DNA from: Pyrodictiaceae archaeon
Lineage (GTDB): Archaea; Thermoproteota; Thermoprotei_A; Sulfolobales; Pyrodictiaceae
Length of the DNA: 6,227 nt
Direction of reading: 5' to 3'
Assembly (NCBI GenBank): GCA_027046105.1
Contig: JALTZQ010000027.1
Span: forward strand, 1 to 6,227
The notes under the pieces were generated by a model, which did no database searches, was not told the DNA's origin, and saw nothing but the letters and a program-made list of their open reading frames with translations. Position 1 is the first letter of the stretch. Each line of letters starts with the position of its first letter. Below are positions 29 to 6,227 of this stretch, in pieces. Made by a program: the position numbers and the translations under genes.

Positions 29-47
29 TGGGGGATGTGGCATGAAT

Positions 48-575
48 CTAAAACAATAGAGTTGAAAGTACTGGAACGGACACAAGCTCCGCCCAGTCTA
101 CCTCGACGCGCTCCGACACCTTGCTCTCCGTTCTGCGCTTCAACAGCGAGAGATAGCGCTCCATGGCGTCCTTGCTTATCCGGCCCGTCTCGTAGAGGAA
201 GCGCACCAGCTTCCTGGCCGCCTTGTAGGCCTTGTCGTTGCCCAGGGCCTCGATAGCCTTCTCCTCGTCCAGGTATCCTAGCCTCTCCAGCGCGGAGACG
301 TAGTCGTTCGCGGTGCGCTCCTCGACCCGCTCCTTCTCTACCAGCCACCGCCTGAAAGAAGCCAGGAGACCGCTATGGAGCGATATAACAGGCAGGCCCG
401 ATGACGCTGGCTCGACCATGAGCCTTGCGCGATATAACAGGTCAAGAACCTGCTCCGCCTTACCAGGGCGGCGCTCCGACCAGGCTGAGCTACGGCGGCC
501 CCTATCCACTATTGCTTGTAGGACGGCTAATAAGTCTGCGGCCATCAGAACCGATAGCAGCCTCACACAAAGCAC
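48..575 (-). CDS. Truncated SSV-type integrase (tyrosine recombinase), N-terminal part only
   Basis: This is the N-terminal part of a site-specific recombinase that would integrate a virus or plasmid into a tRNA gene. The segment from FRRWLVEKERVEERTANDY to the LLKRR stretch matches, from memory, the core-binding domain of SSV1 integrase (FYDYL...ERGISEKTAKDYI, then KAYRLFARFL), including a short basic helix run before the expected catalytic domain. The frame stops at 48 soon after VDWAEL, so the catalytic Arg, His-x-x-Arg and Tyr motifs are absent. The full family is about 330 residues; this frame has 175. The annotated start is GTG at 575; ATG at 545 (MAADLLAV) is an alternative. Residues from about 26 (from the GTG) are encoded by a tRNA-Thr 5' half, the expected place for attP in this family. 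If the element is integrated here, the sequence before the tRNA half is host DNA and the start is fortuitous. Probably non-functional. Confidence 0.7.
   Translation of the reverse strand: MLCVRLLSVLMAADLLAVLQAIVDRGRRSSAWSERRPGKAEQVLDLLYRARLMVEPASSGLPVISLHSGLLASFRRWLVEKERVEERTANDYVSALERLGYLDEEKAIEALGNDKAYKAARKLVRFLYETGRISKDAMERYLSLLKRRTESKVSERVEVDWAELVSVPVLSTLLF
380..441 (-). repeat. Two 13-base direct repeats beside the att core
   Basis: CCTGTTATATCGC (minus strand) occurs at 441-429 and again at 392-380, start to start 49 bases. The copies fall in different reading frames of the integrase ORF (LLYR against PVIS), so they are not a duplicated protein motif. The first copy starts 12 bases after the end of the tRNA half. 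Position and spacing would suit arm-type recombinase or accessory-factor sites, but that is inference. Confidence 0.4.
453..499 (-). other. 5' half of a tRNA-Thr(GGT) gene inside the integrase frame (probable att core)
   Basis: Read on the minus strand from 499: acceptor strand GCCGCCG (499-493), TA (492-491), D stem GCTC (490-487), a ten-base D loop with GG (486-477), D stem GAGC (476-473), G26, anticodon stem CCGCC (471-467), loop CTGGTAA (466-460) with T33 and anticodon GGT, and stem GGCGG (459-455). Both stems pair perfectly. After AG (454-453) a normal variable loop, T arm and acceptor CGGCGGC do not follow, so this is not a complete tRNA. There is no canonical intron after base 37, because the anticodon stem closes directly. 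Its translation (SSAWSERRPGKAE) is typical of a tRNA read as protein. SSV-type integrases carry their attachment site inside the gene, normally as a tRNA 3' half; here it is the 5' half. Confidence 0.75.
527..534 (-). promoter_or_regulatory. TATA-like box upstream of the tRNA half
   Basis: CTTATTAG on the minus strand lies 28-35 bases before the first base of the tRNA half (499). That is a reasonable distance for an archaeal tRNA promoter whose transcript starts a few bases upstream of the mature end. If real, the flank above 499 is host DNA with the original tRNA promoter and the junction is an att site of an integrated element. The same bases also code for D-L-L-A in the integrase frame, so the two readings compete. 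Confidence 0.3.
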
Positions 576-751: not shown

Positions 752-1684
752 TTAAGTTCTAGCACAGCCCTTCGAGACTACTAGATAGTTACTATATATG
801 GTGCAGAGAAGCGTGCGTAGACTATCGATTAAATCACTTGGAAGATGCTGTTCGGGTATCCGTGTGTAAAGCTTTACGGGCGCCCCTAGTGCGCTTAACA
901 AAGCTTTTATTAGCTTAGTTAGTGAGGGTGAGGAAGCAAATCGTGTTGCTAGCTCGACGATCATACGGTGCATTTTAATAGCATCCTCGTACCTTCCCTG
1001 CGTCCAGGCAAGGTAAATCCCTGCTAAGAGCTTAGGTACTAGATTAGCTATTGCATCAACAGCTCCATCAGCACCCGTTGCTAGAGCACTTAGCATATAC
1101 TCCCCGTAGCCAGTTAGAACTGCAAAATCACGTCTCACCGATTTAACGAGATGAACGGTTTTATATAGGTAGTGTAGATCAGGTTCGGTAATCTTCACGC
1201 CTACTACACCGCTATGTTCCACCGCTAGCTGGTAAATCACGTCTATAGGTACCGCATAACCCACATGGCTAGAAATGGTGTATACAACCAATGGCTTATT
1301 GGATGCATCAGCTATGCGCGCGAAGAAATCGAAGAGGGCTTGTTTAGTAGGCTTGTAATAGAGCGGTGGAGTCGTGAAAACGGCATCTACATCAACGTCA
1401 CGTAATTTCTTCGCATTCTCTAGTGCCTCATCGATAGTTGCTGCAGCTACACTCGCGATTACCTTAACGTTCTTACGCGCGTCAAGTACAGCTTCATAAA
1501 GTTTTAACCGCTCCTCCATTCTTAGATATAGTGACTCCCCAACTGTGCCAGCAACATAAAGCCCATTAATACCACTATCCTCAAGCGCCTTTACAAGCCA
1601 CTTAACAGCCTCAAGGTCAATCTCTCCACTTTTACCAAATGGCGTAACTGTAGCAACTACAATACCTGAAACAAAAGGCTCCAA
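752..1684 (-). CDS. Dihydrodipicolinate synthase / KDG aldolase family lyase (DapA superfamily)
   Basis: This is a Schiff-base class I lyase, a cytosolic TIM barrel that adds pyruvate to, or releases it from, an aldehyde-type partner. From the TTG start (310 aa) the family markers are IVVATVTPF (8-16), GTVGE (46-50), PPLYY (106-110), the catalytic Tyr in YTISSHVG (Tyr135) and the Schiff-base Lys in GVKITEPD (Lys164). Thr47, Tyr110 and Tyr135 form the proton-relay triad. His140 stands where true DHDPS has the carboxylate-binding Arg, and Val48 replaces the second Thr of GTTGE, so a lysine-pathway role is doubtful; a 2-keto-3-deoxy-sugar-acid aldolase or related lyase is as likely. The frame is open to ATG 1738, but the 18 extra residues do not look like the family. 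TTG at 1684 has GGTG about 8 bases upstream and starts just before the conserved first strand. It is divergent from the permease gene. Substrate not resolved. Confidence 0.88.
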   Translation of the reverse strand: MEPFVSGIVVATVTPFGKSGEIDLEAVKWLVKALEDSGINGLYVAGTVGESLYLRMEERLKLYEAVLDARKNVKVIASVAAATIDEALENAKKLRDVDVDAVFTTPPLYYKPTKQALFDFFARIADASNKPLVVYTISSHVGYAVPIDVIYQLAVEHSGVVGVKITEPDLHYLYKTVHLVKSVRRDFAVLTGYGEYMLSALATGADGAVDAIANLVPKLLAGIYLAWTQGRYEDAIKMHRMIVELATRFASSPSLTKLIKALLSALGAPVKLYTRIPEQHLPSDLIDSLRTLLCTIYSNYLVVSKGCART

Positions 1685-1717
1685 AGATTTACACCAGGAT
1701 AATCTTGTTAAACTAGA

Positions 1718-1785
1718 ACAATAATATTTGTATTGCATATAGACCCATAATCATGATACAATAATATTTATGATGATGGTATCAT
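1718..1785. promoter_or_regulatory. Divergent promoter region with repeated TATA-like motif and operator-like dyads
   Basis: ACAATAATATTT occurs at 1718-1729 and 1758-1769, exactly 40 bases apart. On the minus strand the 1718 copy is about 40 bases before TTG 1684, and the 1758 copy about 27 before the alternative ATG 1738. On the plus strand the 1758 copy continues as a box for the permease, giving a leader of about 50 bases. The second copy is flanked by the perfect palindrome ATCATGAT (1750-1757) and by ATGAT-GGT-ATCAT (1773-1785). Bases 1750-1777 also form an imperfect dyad with 9 of the outer 11 positions matching. A regulator bound here could occlude TATA-binding protein for both genes; function is inferred. 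Confidence 0.45.
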
Positions 1786-1816
1786 TATGTGTTTTATCCC
1801 CCTATCATCCCACTAG

Positions 1817-1825
1817 AATATATAT
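1817..1825 (+). promoter_or_regulatory. Second TATA-like box before the permease
   Basis: AATATATAT is centred about 24 bases before the chosen ATG at 1845. Used as a TATA box it would give a nearly leaderless transcript, which conflicts with the good ribosome binding site at 1834-1839. The box at 1761-1770 is the alternative. Confidence 0.3.
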
Positions 1826-1833
1826 CAGAGCAC

Positions 1834-1839
1834 GAGGTG
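1834..1839 (+). promoter_or_regulatory. Ribosome binding site that sets the permease start
   Basis: GAGGTG ends five bases before ATG 1845 and matches the anti-Shine-Dalgarno GGAGGTG pattern. It favours this start over the upstream in-frame ATG codons at 1770-1778, whose extra residues (SLCVLSPYHPTRIYIRARG) look unlike the family. Confidence 0.6.
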
Positions 1840-1844
1840 TGGTT

Positions 1845-3308
1845 ATGGCTGAGGAATTGAGTAAAACACTAAGTGAAACCTTAAAGCAAATTCCTCGGCC
1901 GCCACGCGCAACTCTAAGCTGGTTAGTGACAGTATTTGGTCCTGGAGCCATAATAGCATCTGTGACACTGGGTAGTGGAGAACTCGTATGGACACCAAGA
2001 GCTGCTGTAGCCTTCGGTTATGCCATGACATGGGCCTTCCTCTACGGTATCTGGGTCAAGGGTGTTATACAATGGCTTGCCAATAGATGGTATGTGCTTA
2101 CAGGAGAGACCGCGATGAGTGCAACAAGGCGTATAATTGGCTCATGGTTTAACATCTTAATGCTTATCTCAATTTTATCCGTCATGCCATTGTGGTTTAC
2201 AATACTTAGTTCACTAGCTGCCCAAGTGCCGTGGACAGCGCTTGGAAGACCTGTGAGTCTGCATGCATTTTGGATCCCAATTGTAGCCATTACCATAGTA
2301 ATTCTAGCTCTCTCTGCTAAGCTTGGTAAAGCATATAGTGTGCTTGAGAAGCTCATGCAAACTATTCTATGGGCTATGTTTATTGCGTTCTGGATCGCTG
2401 TGCTCATTGGCACTAGACCTGATTGGGGTGCCTTCCTTAGTAATCTCTTTGTGCCACGATTACCCGAGTTTGAACCTTGGATAAAGGAGGTTGCCCCGGA
2501 CATATACAAGCTTGGTCCATTCCTAATACTTGGTACAGCTCTAGGAGCCCTTGGAGGCGGAATACAGGATTACGTTGGTTATAATGCAATGCTTTACGAG
2601 AAACGATGGGGTCTAACTAGTTTCGTTAACCGATTCATGAAGATCTATACAAAACTCGGACGAAGAAAAGTTGAACTACCCGAGTCTGGCGATGAGGCCG
2701 AGAAGCTAAAAGGATGGCTAAAGCCTGCAGCTTTTGACGTTGGATTCTCCTACCTCATGGTATTCATAGTCACCATTCCCGCTGTTATACTGTCTGTTGA
2801 GGTATTAAGACCAAGACATTTAGCACCTACAGGACTGAAAATGGTTGAGGTCCAAGCAGCCTGGCTAACTGAGACTATAGGCCCGTGGGCAGGCGTGCTT
2901 TGGTGGATAGGCGCTTTCTTTGCACTATGGGGTACTTTCTATGGCATGTGGGAGGTTTACGCATGGACCATATACGATATGCTTAGAAGTACATGGCCCG
3001 ACAGATTCTCAACACTAAGTCTTAACAAGGTAAGACTCTACCTATGGGCCTACATTGCGATTATAGGTACGATATTTTATGCAACAGGTGCCAGTCTGCC
3101 ACTCTTAGCTGCTTTCGCAGCAGCAGCCACTCACCTATTTGCTCTAGGACTTTGGGGTATTGCACTACTCATAGCGAATCTAAGATATCTTCCAAAGACC
3201 TATAGGCCCCATCCCGTGATAGTCGTGCTTGCCGTAATTGGTAGCATCATATACTTCGTTTACGGTGTAATACAGTTGATACGAGTCTTCGTGCCCCTTG
3301 CGATATAG
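1845..3308 (+). CDS. Nramp-fold membrane transporter without the classical metal-binding motifs
   Basis: Integral membrane protein of 487 aa with about 11 hydrophobic segments: roughly 26-48, 52-75, 100-130, 142-160, 170-192, 222-250, 300-325, 350-376, then three more to the C-terminus. The first segment (GPGAIIASVTLGSGELVW, GSGE at 43-46) aligns with Nramp TM1, where true metal transporters have DPGN. The second has the family's Lys/Trp-rich helix followed by TGET. In TM6 the MPHN motif is replaced by GGGIQDYVGYNA (237-248). The APC/LeuT-type fold is kept but the side chains that bind Mn/Fe are gone. This divergent branch occurs in bacteria and archaea and, to my knowledge, has no settled substrate; annotation pipelines would probably call it an Nramp metal transporter. 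A basic cytoplasmic loop (about 255-295) separates the halves. It is divergent from the lyase gene, with the dehydrogenase 72 bases downstream, which hints at an organic-acid substrate; that is inference. Confidence 0.85.
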   Translation: MAEELSKTLSETLKQIPRPPRATLSWLVTVFGPGAIIASVTLGSGELVWTPRAAVAFGYAMTWAFLYGIWVKGVIQWLANRWYVLTGETAMSATRRIIGSWFNILMLISILSVMPLWFTILSSLAAQVPWTALGRPVSLHAFWIPIVAITIVILALSAKLGKAYSVLEKLMQTILWAMFIAFWIAVLIGTRPDWGAFLSNLFVPRLPEFEPWIKEVAPDIYKLGPFLILGTALGALGGGIQDYVGYNAMLYEKRWGLTSFVNRFMKIYTKLGRRKVELPESGDEAEKLKGWLKPAAFDVGFSYLMVFIVTIPAVILSVEVLRPRHLAPTGLKMVEVQAAWLTETIGPWAGVLWWIGAFFALWGTFYGMWEVYAWTIYDMLRSTWPDRFSTLSLNKVRLYLWAYIAIIGTIFYATGASLPLLAAFAAAATHLFALGLWGIALLIANLRYLPKTYRPHPVIVVLAVIGSIIYFVYGVIQLIRVFVPLAI

Positions 3309-3339
3309 TGCAGTGGGATCATTAAACACGTTAAGATCA

Positions 3340-3345
3340 TTTTTT
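3340..3345 (+). terminator. Oligo-T terminator after the permease gene
   Basis: A run of six T starts 32 bases after the permease stop codon, with no strong stem before it. T runs alone can end archaeal transcription. It suggests the dehydrogenase may have its own promoter, for example CTATACC at 3349-3355, about 28 bases before its ATG. Confidence 0.35.
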
Positions 3346-3380
3346 CCTACTATACCTATTCGTGAACTTGGGGAATATTC

Positions 3381-4445
3381 ATGGCTCGCGTCAAGCTTGC
3401 AATAGTAAATTATCCTTATTTTAAACAATACAGGATTATTGAAGAACATCTTATGAGACTTAAACAATACTATGATGTTGACTTTGTTGATATAGATGGT
3501 TTGAATGACCAAATAGTCCTTGCTCGTGCACTAAAAGGATACCATGTTCTTATTGTTGCTCATACCCCATACTTTGGTGCAGAGTTCCTCAAACATAATA
3601 AGGATGTAGTTCTTATACTACGTTATGGTATAGGATACGATAACATTGATATTCATGCTGCTGAAAGAGAAGGTGTCATTGTAGCTAGGCTACCCAACTA
3701 CATTGAGCGTGAAGCCGTAGCTGAACATACTTTAGCATTAATGCTTGCAGCACTCAGGAGGCTTACTTTAGCTGATCGTGACCTTAGGGAAGGCAGAGTT
3801 AAACCTGGTGTTTACGATGAGTATGTGCTTGAGAAGCTTACGGGGCCAGCTAATCTTTCCGAGTTGACAATAGGCATAGTGGGTCTAGGCAATATAGGAT
3901 CAAGAGTTGCCGAAATACTTGTTAAAGGTTTTGGTGCTAAAGTGCTAGCCTATGATCCCTATGTTAAACCAGAGCTTGCGAAGCGCTTAGGTGTTAAACT
4001 AGCTAGTAGTATCGAGGAACTTATTTCACAAGTCGATATATTAACCATACATGCACCATTAACGCAAGAGACCTATCATATGATAAATCGCAATGTGCTT
4101 AGCAAGGCCAAGCGAGGCCTTATACTCGTTAACACAGCTCGTGGGGCAATAATCGACACCAAGGCCTTACTATGGGCGCTCGACGAAGGTATTGTGAGCA
4201 TGGCAGCTCTTGATGTTTTCGAAGAAGAACCTCTACCTCCTAATCATCCACTACTGAAGAGAGAGAACGTTATAGTTACGCCACATATTGCAGTTTTCGT
4301 CCATACTACACTTAGGAAGATGTTTGAGCACGTAGTTAATGCCGCAATAGCATATGCGGAGGGAAGGCCGTTAGACGAGTATGTCGTTGTAGTCGCGCGT
4401 CCGAAGGCAGCTAGACCCAATCCATTTCAGTTAGAGGTCAGCTAG
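3381..4445 (+). CDS. D-isomer-specific 2-hydroxyacid dehydrogenase (NAD(P)-dependent)
   Basis: A cytosolic oxidoreductase interconverting a 2-oxoacid and a D-2-hydroxyacid. All signature residues are present: the Rossmann GxGxxG at 168-173 (GLGNIG), Asp192 after the second strand (AYDPY), which favours NAD, catalytic Arg254 in NTARG, Glu283 in DVFEEEP and His301 in PHIAVF. The Arg-to-Glu spacing of 29 equals that of E. coli SerA. The substrate domain (1-110) contains LRYGIGYDNID, the usual substrate-loop region. At 354 aa it is slightly long for the core family but has no ACT or other regulatory domain, so classical feedback-regulated SerA is unlikely; a short phosphoglycerate, glyoxylate/hydroxypyruvate or D-lactate-type enzyme is possible. 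The C-terminal tail ends in a Pro/Arg-rich stretch. The ATG at 3381 has GGGG about 8 bases upstream and begins right before the first beta strand (VKLAIVNYP). Substrate cannot be fixed from sequence. Confidence 0.9.
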   Translation: MARVKLAIVNYPYFKQYRIIEEHLMRLKQYYDVDFVDIDGLNDQIVLARALKGYHVLIVAHTPYFGAEFLKHNKDVVLILRYGIGYDNIDIHAAEREGVIVARLPNYIEREAVAEHTLALMLAALRRLTLADRDLREGRVKPGVYDEYVLEKLTGPANLSELTIGIVGLGNIGSRVAEILVKGFGAKVLAYDPYVKPELAKRLGVKLASSIEELISQVDILTIHAPLTQETYHMINRNVLSKAKRGLILVNTARGAIIDTKALLWALDEGIVSMAALDVFEEEPLPPNHPLLKRENVIVTPHIAVFVHTTLRKMFEHVVNAAIAYAEGRPLDEYVVVVARPKAARPNPFQLEVS

Positions 4446-4449
4446 TAAG

Positions 4450-4455
4450 TTTTTT
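4450..4455 (+). terminator. Oligo-T terminator after the dehydrogenase gene
   Basis: Six T residues start five bases after the TAG at 4443-4445. A second run of five T (4532-4536) lies further on. No stem precedes either. These would separate the dehydrogenase from the GTPase transcript. Confidence 0.35.
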
Positions 4456-4564
4456 GCCATAGGAATCATGTGGAGGAGTTTAATTCTATCCTACTACACC
4501 TGCTCACACGAATTGAAGTTGTTTACATGCCTTTTTATCCTACTGAGAGTTAAGGGCATCCAGA

Positions 4565-4581
4565 AAATATTACATACTAAA
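4565..4581 (+). promoter_or_regulatory. Possible TATA region for the GTPase gene
   Basis: The A/T-rich stretch AAATATTACATACTAAAA precedes the GTPase starts; it holds two TATA-like cores (around 4567 and 4577). Transcription about 25 bases downstream would give a leader of roughly 20-30 bases before TTG 4624. It would fall after ATG 4582 and the frame's earlier ATG 4468, arguing against those starts. The rest of 4446-4623 shows no gene; a strong GGAGGAG at 4472-4478 has no start codon at a usable distance. Confidence 0.3.
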
Positions 4582-4623
4582 ATGCAGCTTCATACACTGA
4601 ATAAGTCCCCTGGGTATGTGGGT

Positions 4624-5841
4624 TTGCCTCCGCCTCAGAGGATGGCTGGTGTAGTGGGTAAGGCTAATGTTGGTAAGTCTACTTTCTTTGCGGCGGCTAC
4701 TCTTGCGACAGTCGAGATAGATAATAGGCCGTTTGTGACTGTGAAGGCTAGTGTTGGTGTTGGCTATGTGCGTGTAAGGTGTGTTCATGTTGAGCTTGGT
4801 TTAGAGAAGTGTGATCCTGTTAACAGTGTTTGTGTTGAAGGGTGGAGGTTTATACCTGTCCAGTTAATGGATGTGCCTGGTCTTATACCTGGAGCGCATC
4901 GTGGCCGTGGCCTTGGCAATAGGTTTTTGGATGAGCTGCGGCAAGCTGATGCATTGATACTTGTTGTTGACGCAGCGGGTTCTACTGATGAGGATGGAAA
5001 CCCTGTTCCACCAGGGAGCTATGATCCTGTAGAGGAGGTTCGTTGGCTTGAGCGTGAGCTCGATGAATGGCTCTATGGTATTCTTCGGAGGGACTGGGAT
5101 CGATTCGTTTTAAAGACGCTTGTCTCTGGTATGGACGTGGTTGACGCGCTTACGCAGAGGCTTAGTGGGCTAAATGTCGGTAAACCTATGGTTGAAACTG
5201 CTTTACGTAGAGCAGGGCTATTAGAGAAGAGTCTTAAGTCGTGGACTCTAGATGATCTACGCTTATTTGTTTCTGAGCTTAGGAAGACAAAGCCAATACT
5301 AGTTGCTGCTAATAAGGCTGACCTACCTGCTGCAGAAGAGAACATAAAGAGGATGAAGAGGGAGCTAAAGGACTATATCATCGTACCTACTAGTGCTATG
5401 GCTGAATTGGCGCTTCGTCGTGCAGCTAGGGCTGGGCTAATAAGGTATCTTCCTGGCGACAACAGGTTTGAGGTTATCAATGAAGGAAGGCTAACAAAAC
5501 AGCAACTACGAGCACTAGAGTATATTGAGGAGAGGGTTCTACGTAAGTGGGGTTCTACTGGGGTACAAGAGGCTATTAATAAGACCTTCCTAGAGCTGCT
5601 TGGCATGATAGTCGTTTACCCCGTTGAAGACCCAACACACTACACTGATGGCAAGGGCCGTGTACTACCTGATGCATACCTTGTACCACGTGGTACTACT
5701 GCTAGACAGTTAGCCTACATGGTTCATACTGATCTAGGTAAAACCTTCCTATACGCCATTGATGCAAGGAGTAAGAGGAGGCTTGGAGAAGACTATGAGC
5801 TTGAGAATGGCATGGTTGTTAAGATAGTAGCTACTGCCTAG
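4624..5841 (+). CDS. YchF/OLA1-type Obg-family GTPase with TGS domain
   Basis: A cytosolic P-loop GTPase or ATPase of the Obg/YchF group, a ribosome-associated family linked to translation and stress. From TTG 4624 (405 aa): P-loop GKANVGKS at 12-19, G3 motif DVPG at 83-86 followed by the glycine-rich IPGAHRGRGLGNRFLDELRQAD segment, and G4 motif NKAD at 230-233. Between G3 and G4 is a long helical insert (about 130-215) usual for archaeal homologues. The C-terminal 75 residues (IVVYPVEDP to VVKIVATA) form a TGS domain. NKAD predicts guanine specificity, unlike the NxxE of bacterial YchF and human OLA1. The frame extends to ATG 4468, but the first 50 or so residues look non-coding. TTG 4624 has TGGGT about 8 bases upstream; GTG 4618 and ATG 4642 are alternatives, so the exact start is uncertain. 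The gene converges on the ABC permease. Confidence 0.88.
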   Translation: MPPPQRMAGVVGKANVGKSTFFAAATLATVEIDNRPFVTVKASVGVGYVRVRCVHVELGLEKCDPVNSVCVEGWRFIPVQLMDVPGLIPGAHRGRGLGNRFLDELRQADALILVVDAAGSTDEDGNPVPPGSYDPVEEVRWLERELDEWLYGILRRDWDRFVLKTLVSGMDVVDALTQRLSGLNVGKPMVETALRRAGLLEKSLKSWTLDDLRLFVSELRKTKPILVAANKADLPAAEENIKRMKRELKDYIIVPTSAMAELALRRAARAGLIRYLPGDNRFEVINEGRLTKQQLRALEYIEERVLRKWGSTGVQEAINKTFLELLGMIVVYPVEDPTHYTDGKGRVLPDAYLVPRGTTARQLAYMVHTDLGKTFLYAIDARSKRRLGEDYELENGMVVKIVATA

Positions 5842-6227
5842 ATCCTTGGGCCTCGTCTTAGCCTTGGGTTAAGGTATTCTTCAAGCCCTAGTCCTATCAA
5901 CATAACCGATAGTACTGCTATAGATATCATTAGGCCTGGTGGGATGAACCACCACCATAGCCCTAGGAAGAGGGCATTACGCTCCATAGCATAGTGGATT
6001 ATCATTCCCCAACTCTTCGCCGTGGGGTCGCCAAGGCCTAGAAAGGCTAGTGATGCTTCGGTAAGCATTGCTATAGCTGTAACTGTTATCACCTCAACTA
6101 TTATCAGTGGAGTAACGTTTGGCAGTATATGGCGGAACATTACCCTTGTATGGGACGCTCCTACTGCTAGTGCAGCCTCGATGTAGGGCTCCTCTTTGAG
6201 CCTTATCACCGCTGATCTTATCAACCT
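5838..6227 (-). CDS. Oligopeptide-type ABC transporter permease (DppC/OppC family), C-terminal part
   Basis: The C-terminal 129 residues of an inner-membrane permease of the binding-protein-dependent-transport family; the gene continues past the right edge. The EAA loop is clear: EPYIEAALAVGASHTRVMF, then ILPN (EAA at 17-19, Gly23 and Ile-Leu-Pro at 33-35 of the visible part), the cytoplasmic contact with the ATPase subunit. Two or more membrane segments follow (IIVEVITVTAIAMLTEASLAFLGLG, and WWWFIPPGLMISIAVLSVMLIG), then EEYLNPRLRRG, matching the usual DppC ending (GDGLRDALDPRLR). The SLAFLGLGDP...SWG stretch is also typical. Cognate genes (a second permease, two ATPases, a binding protein) should lie beyond 6227. 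Substrate could be peptides or sugars; crenarchaeal dipeptide-type systems import both. The stop codon overlaps that of the GTPase gene. Confidence 0.9.
   Translation of the reverse strand, partial: RLIRSAVIRLKEEPYIEAALAVGASHTRVMFRHILPNVTPLIIVEVITVTAIAMLTEASLAFLGLGDPTAKSWGMIIHYAMERNALFLGLWWWFIPPGLMISIAVLSVMLIGLGLEEYLNPRLRRGPRI

What the first reader, a model, noticed from the sequence alone, without database searches (positions are those of the whole stretch)
453..499. A tRNA-Thr 5' half, not a 3' half, is embedded in frame in an SSV-type integrase
The minus strand gives a perfect acceptor strand, D arm and anticodon arm for tRNA-Thr(GGT), and the same bases are read as protein just before the integrase core-binding domain. 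This is where SSV1 carries its attP. From established knowledge, archaeal and bacterial tRNA-targeting integrases usually carry the 3' half, so integration restores the tRNA end. Use of the 5' half would mean the element supplies the start of the tRNA, and possibly a promoter, on integration. That is uncommon and worth following.
Basis: partly seen in the sequence, partly recalled or inferred. Interest (0 to 1): 0.75.

Follow-up and report, generated by a model that had tools for sequence, protein, structure and literature searches.

The report
Crenarchaeal integrase using tRNA front half
A mobile DNA element of heat-loving archaea seems to insert itself into a transfer-RNA gene by carrying a copy of that gene's front half inside its own integrase gene, so that the rebuilt tRNA would be driven by integrase DNA; the stretch in this window is a decayed end of such an element.

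Summary
Window 499-453 (-) matches the first 47 bases of tRNA-Thr(GGT) at 46 positions and stops there; no 3' half follows. The same bases are read in frame into an integrase core-binding domain, but the gene is a remnant without catalytic domain. A related genome, G009, shows the whole anatomy: tRNA-Thr 5' half plus intC at one end of a 14.2-kb insert, and an HTH-like intN fused in frame to the intact tRNA-Thr at the other; G012 shows the empty site. G210, G081 and G213 have like layouts (Thr, Val, Val). Most integrase relatives sampled carry an antisense 3' half (70 of 104). In archaea 5'-half use is in print for pTN3-like integrases and one thaumarchaeal element. Not seen in print: TGTTATA motifs like lambda arm sites, two direct copies inside intC coding at fixed register in five integrases, and inverted pairs upstream of intN in 5 of 15 cases. 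A search with that spacing alone led to G213, whose intC has no detectable similarity to G009's. Upstream of the window's half lies an intN tail much less like G009 than its intC (12/24 against 110/124), suggesting an older integration scar. Activity, promoter and binding are untested.

The parts
453..499 (-). tRNA-Thr(GGT) 5' half, 47 bp: att core
   Evidence: 46/47 identical to complete tRNA-Thr(GGT) in G001, G012, G015, G020; identity stops at 453
79..452 (-). intC remnant: linker and core-binding domain, catalytic domain missing
   Evidence: BLASTN 79-499 against G009, 86.5% over 421 columns; 110/124 aa identical; phrog_5127
433..439 (-). arm-like motif copy 1, TGTTATA; its GTTATA starts 14 nt after the core end
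   Evidence: same register in G009, G210, G081, G213
384..390 (-). arm-like motif copy 2, 49 nt further, read in another frame
500..575 (-). intN tail (about 25 codons), probably scar of an earlier integration; the HTH part is absent
   Evidence: score 55, reached by 0 of 3000 and 0 of 4000 shuffles and 0 of 130 other tRNA upstream regions
527..536 (-). TATA-like GACTTATTAG 37 nt upstream of the tRNA start (promoter role inferred)
   Evidence: GACTTAGTAG at the same distance in G020, counted by hand
48..575 (-). 175-aa ORF joining intN tail, core and intC remnant in frame
   Evidence: an ENA-sourced 175-aa protein differs from it at one residue, apart from the start residue
46..70 (+). CRISPR-type repeat GAATCTAAAACAATAGAGTTGAAAG abutting the truncated integrase
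   Evidence: A 2-mismatch form occurs twice, 68 nt apart, in 1 of 214 genomes (G023); four copies, two of them degenerate
752..6227 (.). flanking genes of chromosomal type: DHDPS-like (-), Nramp-like (+), D-2-hydroxyacid dehydrogenase (+), YchF-type GTPase (+), ABC permease (-)
   Evidence: the DHDPS-Nramp pair also in G024 (the latter gene judged by eye)

Best explanation
The 47 bp are the att core left at the intC end of an integrated, now decayed element whose suicidal tyrosine integrase targets the 5' half of tRNA genes. In the free element one gene would read HTH-intN, core, intC. Recombination in the core with the host tRNA gene would split it: intC stays beside the displaced 5' half (as here), while intN, fused in frame to the rebuilt tRNA, becomes its upstream region and presumably its promoter. 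The integrase probably also binds arm sites: TGTTATA copies on both sides of the core, inverted to each other, two of them written inside intC, perhaps through its N-terminal HTH. In this window the sequence upstream of the half is an intN tail much less like G009 than its intC, so most likely an older integration had already given this tRNA an integrase-derived upstream region before the present element arrived. Shown by sequence: two-ended anatomy in G009 and G213, in G081 at contig ends, in G210 on two contigs; empty site in G012; motif conservation. Inferred: recombination activity, promoter, arm binding, order of events.
For: G009: 5' half followed in frame by intC (PF16795, E 3.4e-19) and, 14.2 kb away, intN (HTH_3, E 2.4e-4, just below its cut-off) fused to intact tRNA-Thr, core 45/45 identical. 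G012 carries genes matching both G009 flanks around one tRNA-Thr. Same 5'-half layout in G210 (Thr), G081 (Val), G213 (Val). 14 of 57 intN-like matches lie up to 150 nt upstream of an intact tRNA in the same orientation (Thr 3, Val 8, Ala 2, Ile 1), 12 of them open in frame through it. Motifs: in five integrases 14 of the 20 invariant positions among the 75 after the core fall in the two copies; 0 of 300 permutations for the four first known; upstream of intN 6 exact copies in 15 regions, 0 of 1000 shuffles; out-of-sample hit G213, an integrase by PF00589 without BLASTP similarity to G009's intC. Mosaic: intN tail 12/24, intC 110/124 identical to G009. G012's empty tRNA-Thr also has an intN-like tail (score 44, 0 of 4000 shuffles).
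Against: The far end in the window's own genome could not be looked at. The window's right flank lacks the gene found upstream of tRNA-Thr in G001, G009, G012 and G015; G020 and G212 do not show that order either. The arm pattern has no genome-wide excess (14 matches against 13 for the backward control). Of 15 intN upstream regions only 5 have the inverted pair, G009 and L126 have one copy (the latter with a mismatch), and 8 have none in the stretch tested, among them G210's, whose intC does carry the two direct copies. The scar signal is clear only in the window; G012's score (44) is the best of 130 tRNA upstream regions but the next, from an unrelated genome, is 40, and the intN profile gave G012 only E 0.43.
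Confidence: 0.72

Rival explanations
1. The window holds a fragment of one unsplit integrase gene (intN, attP, intC) of an element that never integrated here through tRNA-Thr, cut at both ends by deletions.
For: The ORF runs in frame from the intN tail through the core into intC, and spacer and D-loop length compensate so that the frame is kept (37+47 nt against 39+45 in G009; counted).
Against: intN tail and intC differ greatly in similarity to G009 (12/24 against 110/124). The HTH and the upstream motifs are not seen at 575-900. G012 has a like tail beside an uninterrupted tRNA.
Confidence: 0.2
2. It is a member of the pTN3-like integrases of Thermococcales that moved into Crenarchaeota.
For: Same use of the 5' half, same rebuilding of the tRNA away from its original promoter (PMC8371274, PMC5495485); 8 of 37 Thermococcaceae loci carry a sense 5' half whose best match is tRNA-Leu or tRNA-Ser and are probable pTN3-like members.
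Against: In a tree of 32 chosen rows window and G009 group with crenarchaeal 3'-half integrases (99/98), the eight Thermococcaceae 5'-half rows lie on the other side, and starred branches force at least 3 label changes (long branches flagged; G081, G210, G213 not included). The HTH-intN is all but absent in Thermococcaceae (1 of 94 genomes, E 0.0475).
Confidence: 0.07
3. An intron-bearing or split tRNA-Thr gene whose 3' half lies to the left.
For: Rfam's tRNA model spans 499-402.
Against: Score below gathering, poor acceptor pairing; ARAGORN finds none; folding is ordinary (z -1.29); G009 has the same half with the same non-tRNA sequence after it and an intact tRNA elsewhere.
Confidence: 0.01

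Closest known systems
pTN3-like suicidal integrases (Thermococcus nautili pTN3; PMC5495485 passages, PMC8371274 section 18)
   Same: att core is the 5' half of a tRNA gene inside the integrase gene; integration splits the gene and rebuilds the tRNA away from its original promoter.
   Different: Targets here are tRNA-Thr and Val (intN next to Ala and Ile too); pTN3 uses tRNA-Leu, and my Thermococcaceae 5'-half loci best match Leu or Ser. HTH-intN is not found there apart from one marginal hit; of 7 such loci scanned, 2 have a single TGTTATA and none two; the tree places them apart.
SSV1 / pT26-2 type suicidal integrases (PF16795; pGE2 of Pyrococcus abyssi)
   Same: Catalytic family of G009, att inside the gene just before the core-binding domain, gene split on integration.
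   Different: 70 of 104 sampled loci carry the 3' half antisense; this group the 5' half in sense. G081 and G213 fit PF00589 better than PF16795.
Lambda-type integrases with arm-binding domain and arm sites (PMC8371274 section 17; PMC8138268 passages)
   Same: Repeated short motifs flank the core in opposite orientation, and the integrase has an extra N-terminal DNA-binding-like domain.
   Different: No homology of the N-terminal domain claimed; here the downstream motifs lie inside the integrase coding sequence; binding untested.
CalSub-E1, thaumarchaeal element in the 5' region of tRNA-Ser (PMC6563490 passage)
   Same: Use of a tRNA 5' region.
   Different: Only the published passage was seen; its integrase was not compared.

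Membership tests
pTN3-like integrases | att core is the tRNA 5' half, in sense, in the integrase gene | tested here: met
pTN3-like integrases | intact tRNA rebuilt directly behind intN | tested here: met
   In relatives G009, G213 and, on another contig than its intC, G210; not examinable in the window's own genome
pTN3-like integrases | phylogenetic grouping with pTN3-like rows | tested here: not met
   with probable kin of pTN3; pTN3 itself was not at hand and long branches were flagged
SSV1/pT26-2 integrases | PF16795 catalytic domain | tested here: inconclusive
   G009 69.8 bits against a cut-off of 27; G213 25.9 and G081 17.2, below it, with PF00589 above its cut-off; the window's fragment ends before the domain
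SSV1/pT26-2 integrases | att core from the tRNA 3' half | tested here: not met
Lambda-type arm-site system | repeated arm motifs on both sides of the core | tested here: inconclusive
   Both sides in G081 and G213, one upstream copy in G009, none upstream in G210; the window keeps the intC side only
Lambda-type arm-site system | integrase N-terminal domain binds the arm motifs | not testable with these tools
   HTH-like sequence and model only
Functional tRNA gene | complete cloverleaf | tested here: not met

The most novel reading that the evidence does not exclude
A second archaeal group of 5'-half suicidal integrases, arisen apart from pTN3, works with a lambda-like arm system: an HTH arm-binding domain and inverted TGTTATA sites, two of them dual-coded inside the integrase gene and kept even where the catalytic parts have diverged beyond recognition. 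Each integration hands the host tRNA an integrase-derived promoter that can outlive the element as a scar, and re-integration at a scarred tRNA fuses the old intN tail to a new intC, shuffling integrase halves at the core.
Probability: 0.4. Interest if true: 0.72.

Novelty: new variant of a known kind. Interest (0 to 1): 0.6.

Why it matters
A 2021 review'-half use unique to pTN3-like integrases in archaea (PMC8371274 section 18). A separate crenarchaeal group would mean the switch from 3' to 5' half happened more than once. Arm-like sites inside an archaeal integrase gene would give a testable basis for how such enzymes assemble on attP and choose direction. Integrase-derived upstream regions at host tRNA genes would be a clear case of mobile-element coding DNA reused as a housekeeping promoter.

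Tried and rejected
Intron-bearing or split tRNA: rejected. Fossil antisense 3'-half att at window 395-440, suggested by the peptide EPASSGL resembling EPATSGL of Thermococcales attP: rejected at DNA level (394 of 400 shuffles score as well); the peptide is absent from G210 and G081. My first reading, that 500-575 is the original chromosomal tRNA promoter, was dropped once it proved like intN. Searches without result: integrase in viral contigs and phages, DHDPS in genome contigs; in plasmids only pGE2 for the window's ORF. An intN profile, built with L117's own intN among its nine rows, found upstream of tRNA-Thr sites L117, L186 (G038) and the window (E 4.1e-4), G012 only at 0.43, not G020. 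G020, G212 and the G210 half score weakly (11, 25 and 26 of 300 shuffles as good), so scars there are not claimed. One origin of the 5'-half integrases is not shown: (48 rows) G081 is a long branch, and G213 and G009 intC have no BLASTP similarity, while G213 and G081 share 37%. Fold search of intN gave no match at E 0.001 or better; HTH regulators appear only among weak hits. Counting notes: L094 and L166 are the same place, so its 67 loci are 66 places; classed there were 30 loci, 7 and 30 Thermococcaceae loci; the other Thermococcaceae matches came with a laxer BLAST limit (1e-3 against 1e-4). The permutation test was set to stop at 300.

Full report
What is there. The minus strand of 453-499 is the front 47 bases of tRNA-Thr(GGT): 46 of 47 identical to complete genes found in 4 of 20 genomes of the nearest family by a pattern with up to 3 substitutions. 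The likeness ends at 453 and no 3' half follows. The ORF 575-48 reads through it into an integrase core-binding domain (phrog_5127; pGE2 integrase 42% over 91 columns). Similarity to the closest relative ends at window 79, before the catalytic domain, next to a CRISPR-type repeat at 46-70. So the integrase here is a remnant.

The complete relative. A protein search of 214 order genomes matched 26 at E 0.01 or better. The best, G009, has the same gene: 110 of 124 residues identical after the core. Its 5' half (45 bp, identical in both copies) is followed in frame by a full intC with the archaeal phage-integrase domain PF16795. The other end, 14.2 kb away, has a 73-residue HTH-like intN fused in frame to the intact tRNA-Thr(GGT). 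The insert also encodes a DnaA-like initiator (phrog_5484). In G012 genes matching both G009 flanks stand around one uninterrupted tRNA-Thr, the empty site; G001 and G015 share the upstream flank, G020 and G212 do not.

A wider group. An intN search gave 57 matches in 48 of 214 genomes. 14 of the 57 lie up to 150 nt upstream of an intact tRNA in the same orientation: Thr 3, Val 8, Ala 2, Ile 1; 12 are open in frame through the tRNA, two decayed. 17 of the 57 lie in open frames of 420 residues or more, and 14 of these have a whole tRNA starting 414-515 nt before the match end on the same strand; they look like ordinary, non-suicidal relatives. On the intC side, 104 loci were classed by the tRNA piece near the core-binding domain: 70 an antisense 3' half, 11 a sense 5' half (G009, G210, G081 and eight Thermococcaceae loci best matching Leu or Ser), 17 none, 3 middle, 3 whole (103 distinct places). 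A tree of 32 chosen rows puts window and G009 with crenarchaeal 3'-half rows (99/98) and the Thermococcaceae 5'-half rows elsewhere, with at least three label changes forced by well-supported branches; long branches were flagged, and G081, G210 and G213 were not in it.

Arm-like sites. In the 75 bases after the core of five integrases (window, G009, G210, G081, G213), 20 positions never vary, 8 of them in a first TGTTATAT and 6 in a second GTTATA exactly 49 bases on. As 49 is not a multiple of 3, the copies are read in different frames (TTG/CTG TTA TAT; GTT ATA), so the constraint is on DNA. For the four first known, 0 of 300 column permutations gave as good a repeat. Upstream of intN the inverted motif occurs as a pair 33-34 nt apart, counting one mismatch, in G213, G116, G173 (one of its two), G020 and G081, singly in G009; 6 exact copies in 15 regions, 0 of 1000 shuffles. 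8 of the 15 regions have none there, G210 among them. In a 14.6-kb stretch of G009 the 7-mer occurs four times, three at these places. A search for two copies at this spacing gave 14 matches in 13 of 214 genomes against 13 for the backward control, so no overall excess; G210 is missed because its second copy lacks the first T. Three of the 14 sit in integrases, and the one in G213 had not been found by similarity to intC. There a tRNA-Val(CAC) 5' half, 46/46 identical to the intact tRNA behind intN on the same contig and strand 16.3 kb on, stands in the expected register and reads in frame into an integrase (PF00589, phrog_5127). That intC is 37% identical to G081's and not detectably similar to G009's by BLASTP, so core use, register and motifs are kept where the rest has diverged. 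I take the motifs as probable integrase arm sites. The intN model is a confident all-helical fold (pLDDT 89), HTH_3 hits 5 of 12 members at E 0.1, but fold search gave nothing below E 0.001.

The window's history. Bases 500-575 encode a tail like intN: score 55, reached by none of 3000 and 4000 shuffles nor by any of 130 other tRNA upstream regions. Yet it is only 12/24 identical to G009's intN while intC is 110/124, and the HTH part and upstream motifs are missing. G012's empty tRNA-Thr has a like tail (score 44, 0 of 4000 shuffles), the best of the 130, though the next, from an unrelated genome, is 40. The simplest account is an older integration that left an intN tail upstream of the tRNA, then a second element whose intC lies to the left, later truncated. 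An unsplit gene cut at both ends is the main rival.

Known and new. Papers: PMC8371274 (outline, sections 17, 18, 31 and passages), PMC5495485, PMC6563490, PMC6972569, PMC8138268 (passages), PMC5882108 (whole text). They describe 5'-half use for pTN3-like integrases and one thaumarchaeal element, separate histories of intN and intC, and length compensation around att. In the listings and in what I read I saw no report of 5'-half integrases in Pyrodictiaceae-type hosts nor of arm sites in archaeal suicidal integrases; the library holds open-licence papers only, and most listed papers were not opened.

Noticed in passing
window 46-70 (+): A CRISPR-type repeat abuts the truncated integrase; a close form is repeated in G023 contig C82. 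An array may lie to the left of the window.
   Followed up: partly
L229 and L231 (G084, G085), about -280 to -255 upstream of tRNA-Ala: Iterated TGTAATAT/TGTGATAT repeats 11-12 nt apart upstream of tRNA-Ala-type intN genes, perhaps another arm or operator motif.
   Followed up: no
L131, L132, L133, L136, L209, L211, L213, L215, L219, L220, L221, L225, L227, L234: Long open integrase frames with the same kind of HTH stretch and a whole tRNA starting 414-515 nt before the match end, possibly non-suicidal relatives of this group.
   Followed up: no
L325:1488-2396 and L122:7200-8087: Val-targeting intC of G213 and G081 fit PF00589 while Thr-targeting G009 fits PF16795, although the intN parts are alike: intN may have been joined to different catalytic halves.
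   Followed up: partly
L117:10032-10940 (-): DnaA-like initiator in the G009 element (phrog_5484), reminiscent of archaeal viruses such as APOV1.
   Followed up: no
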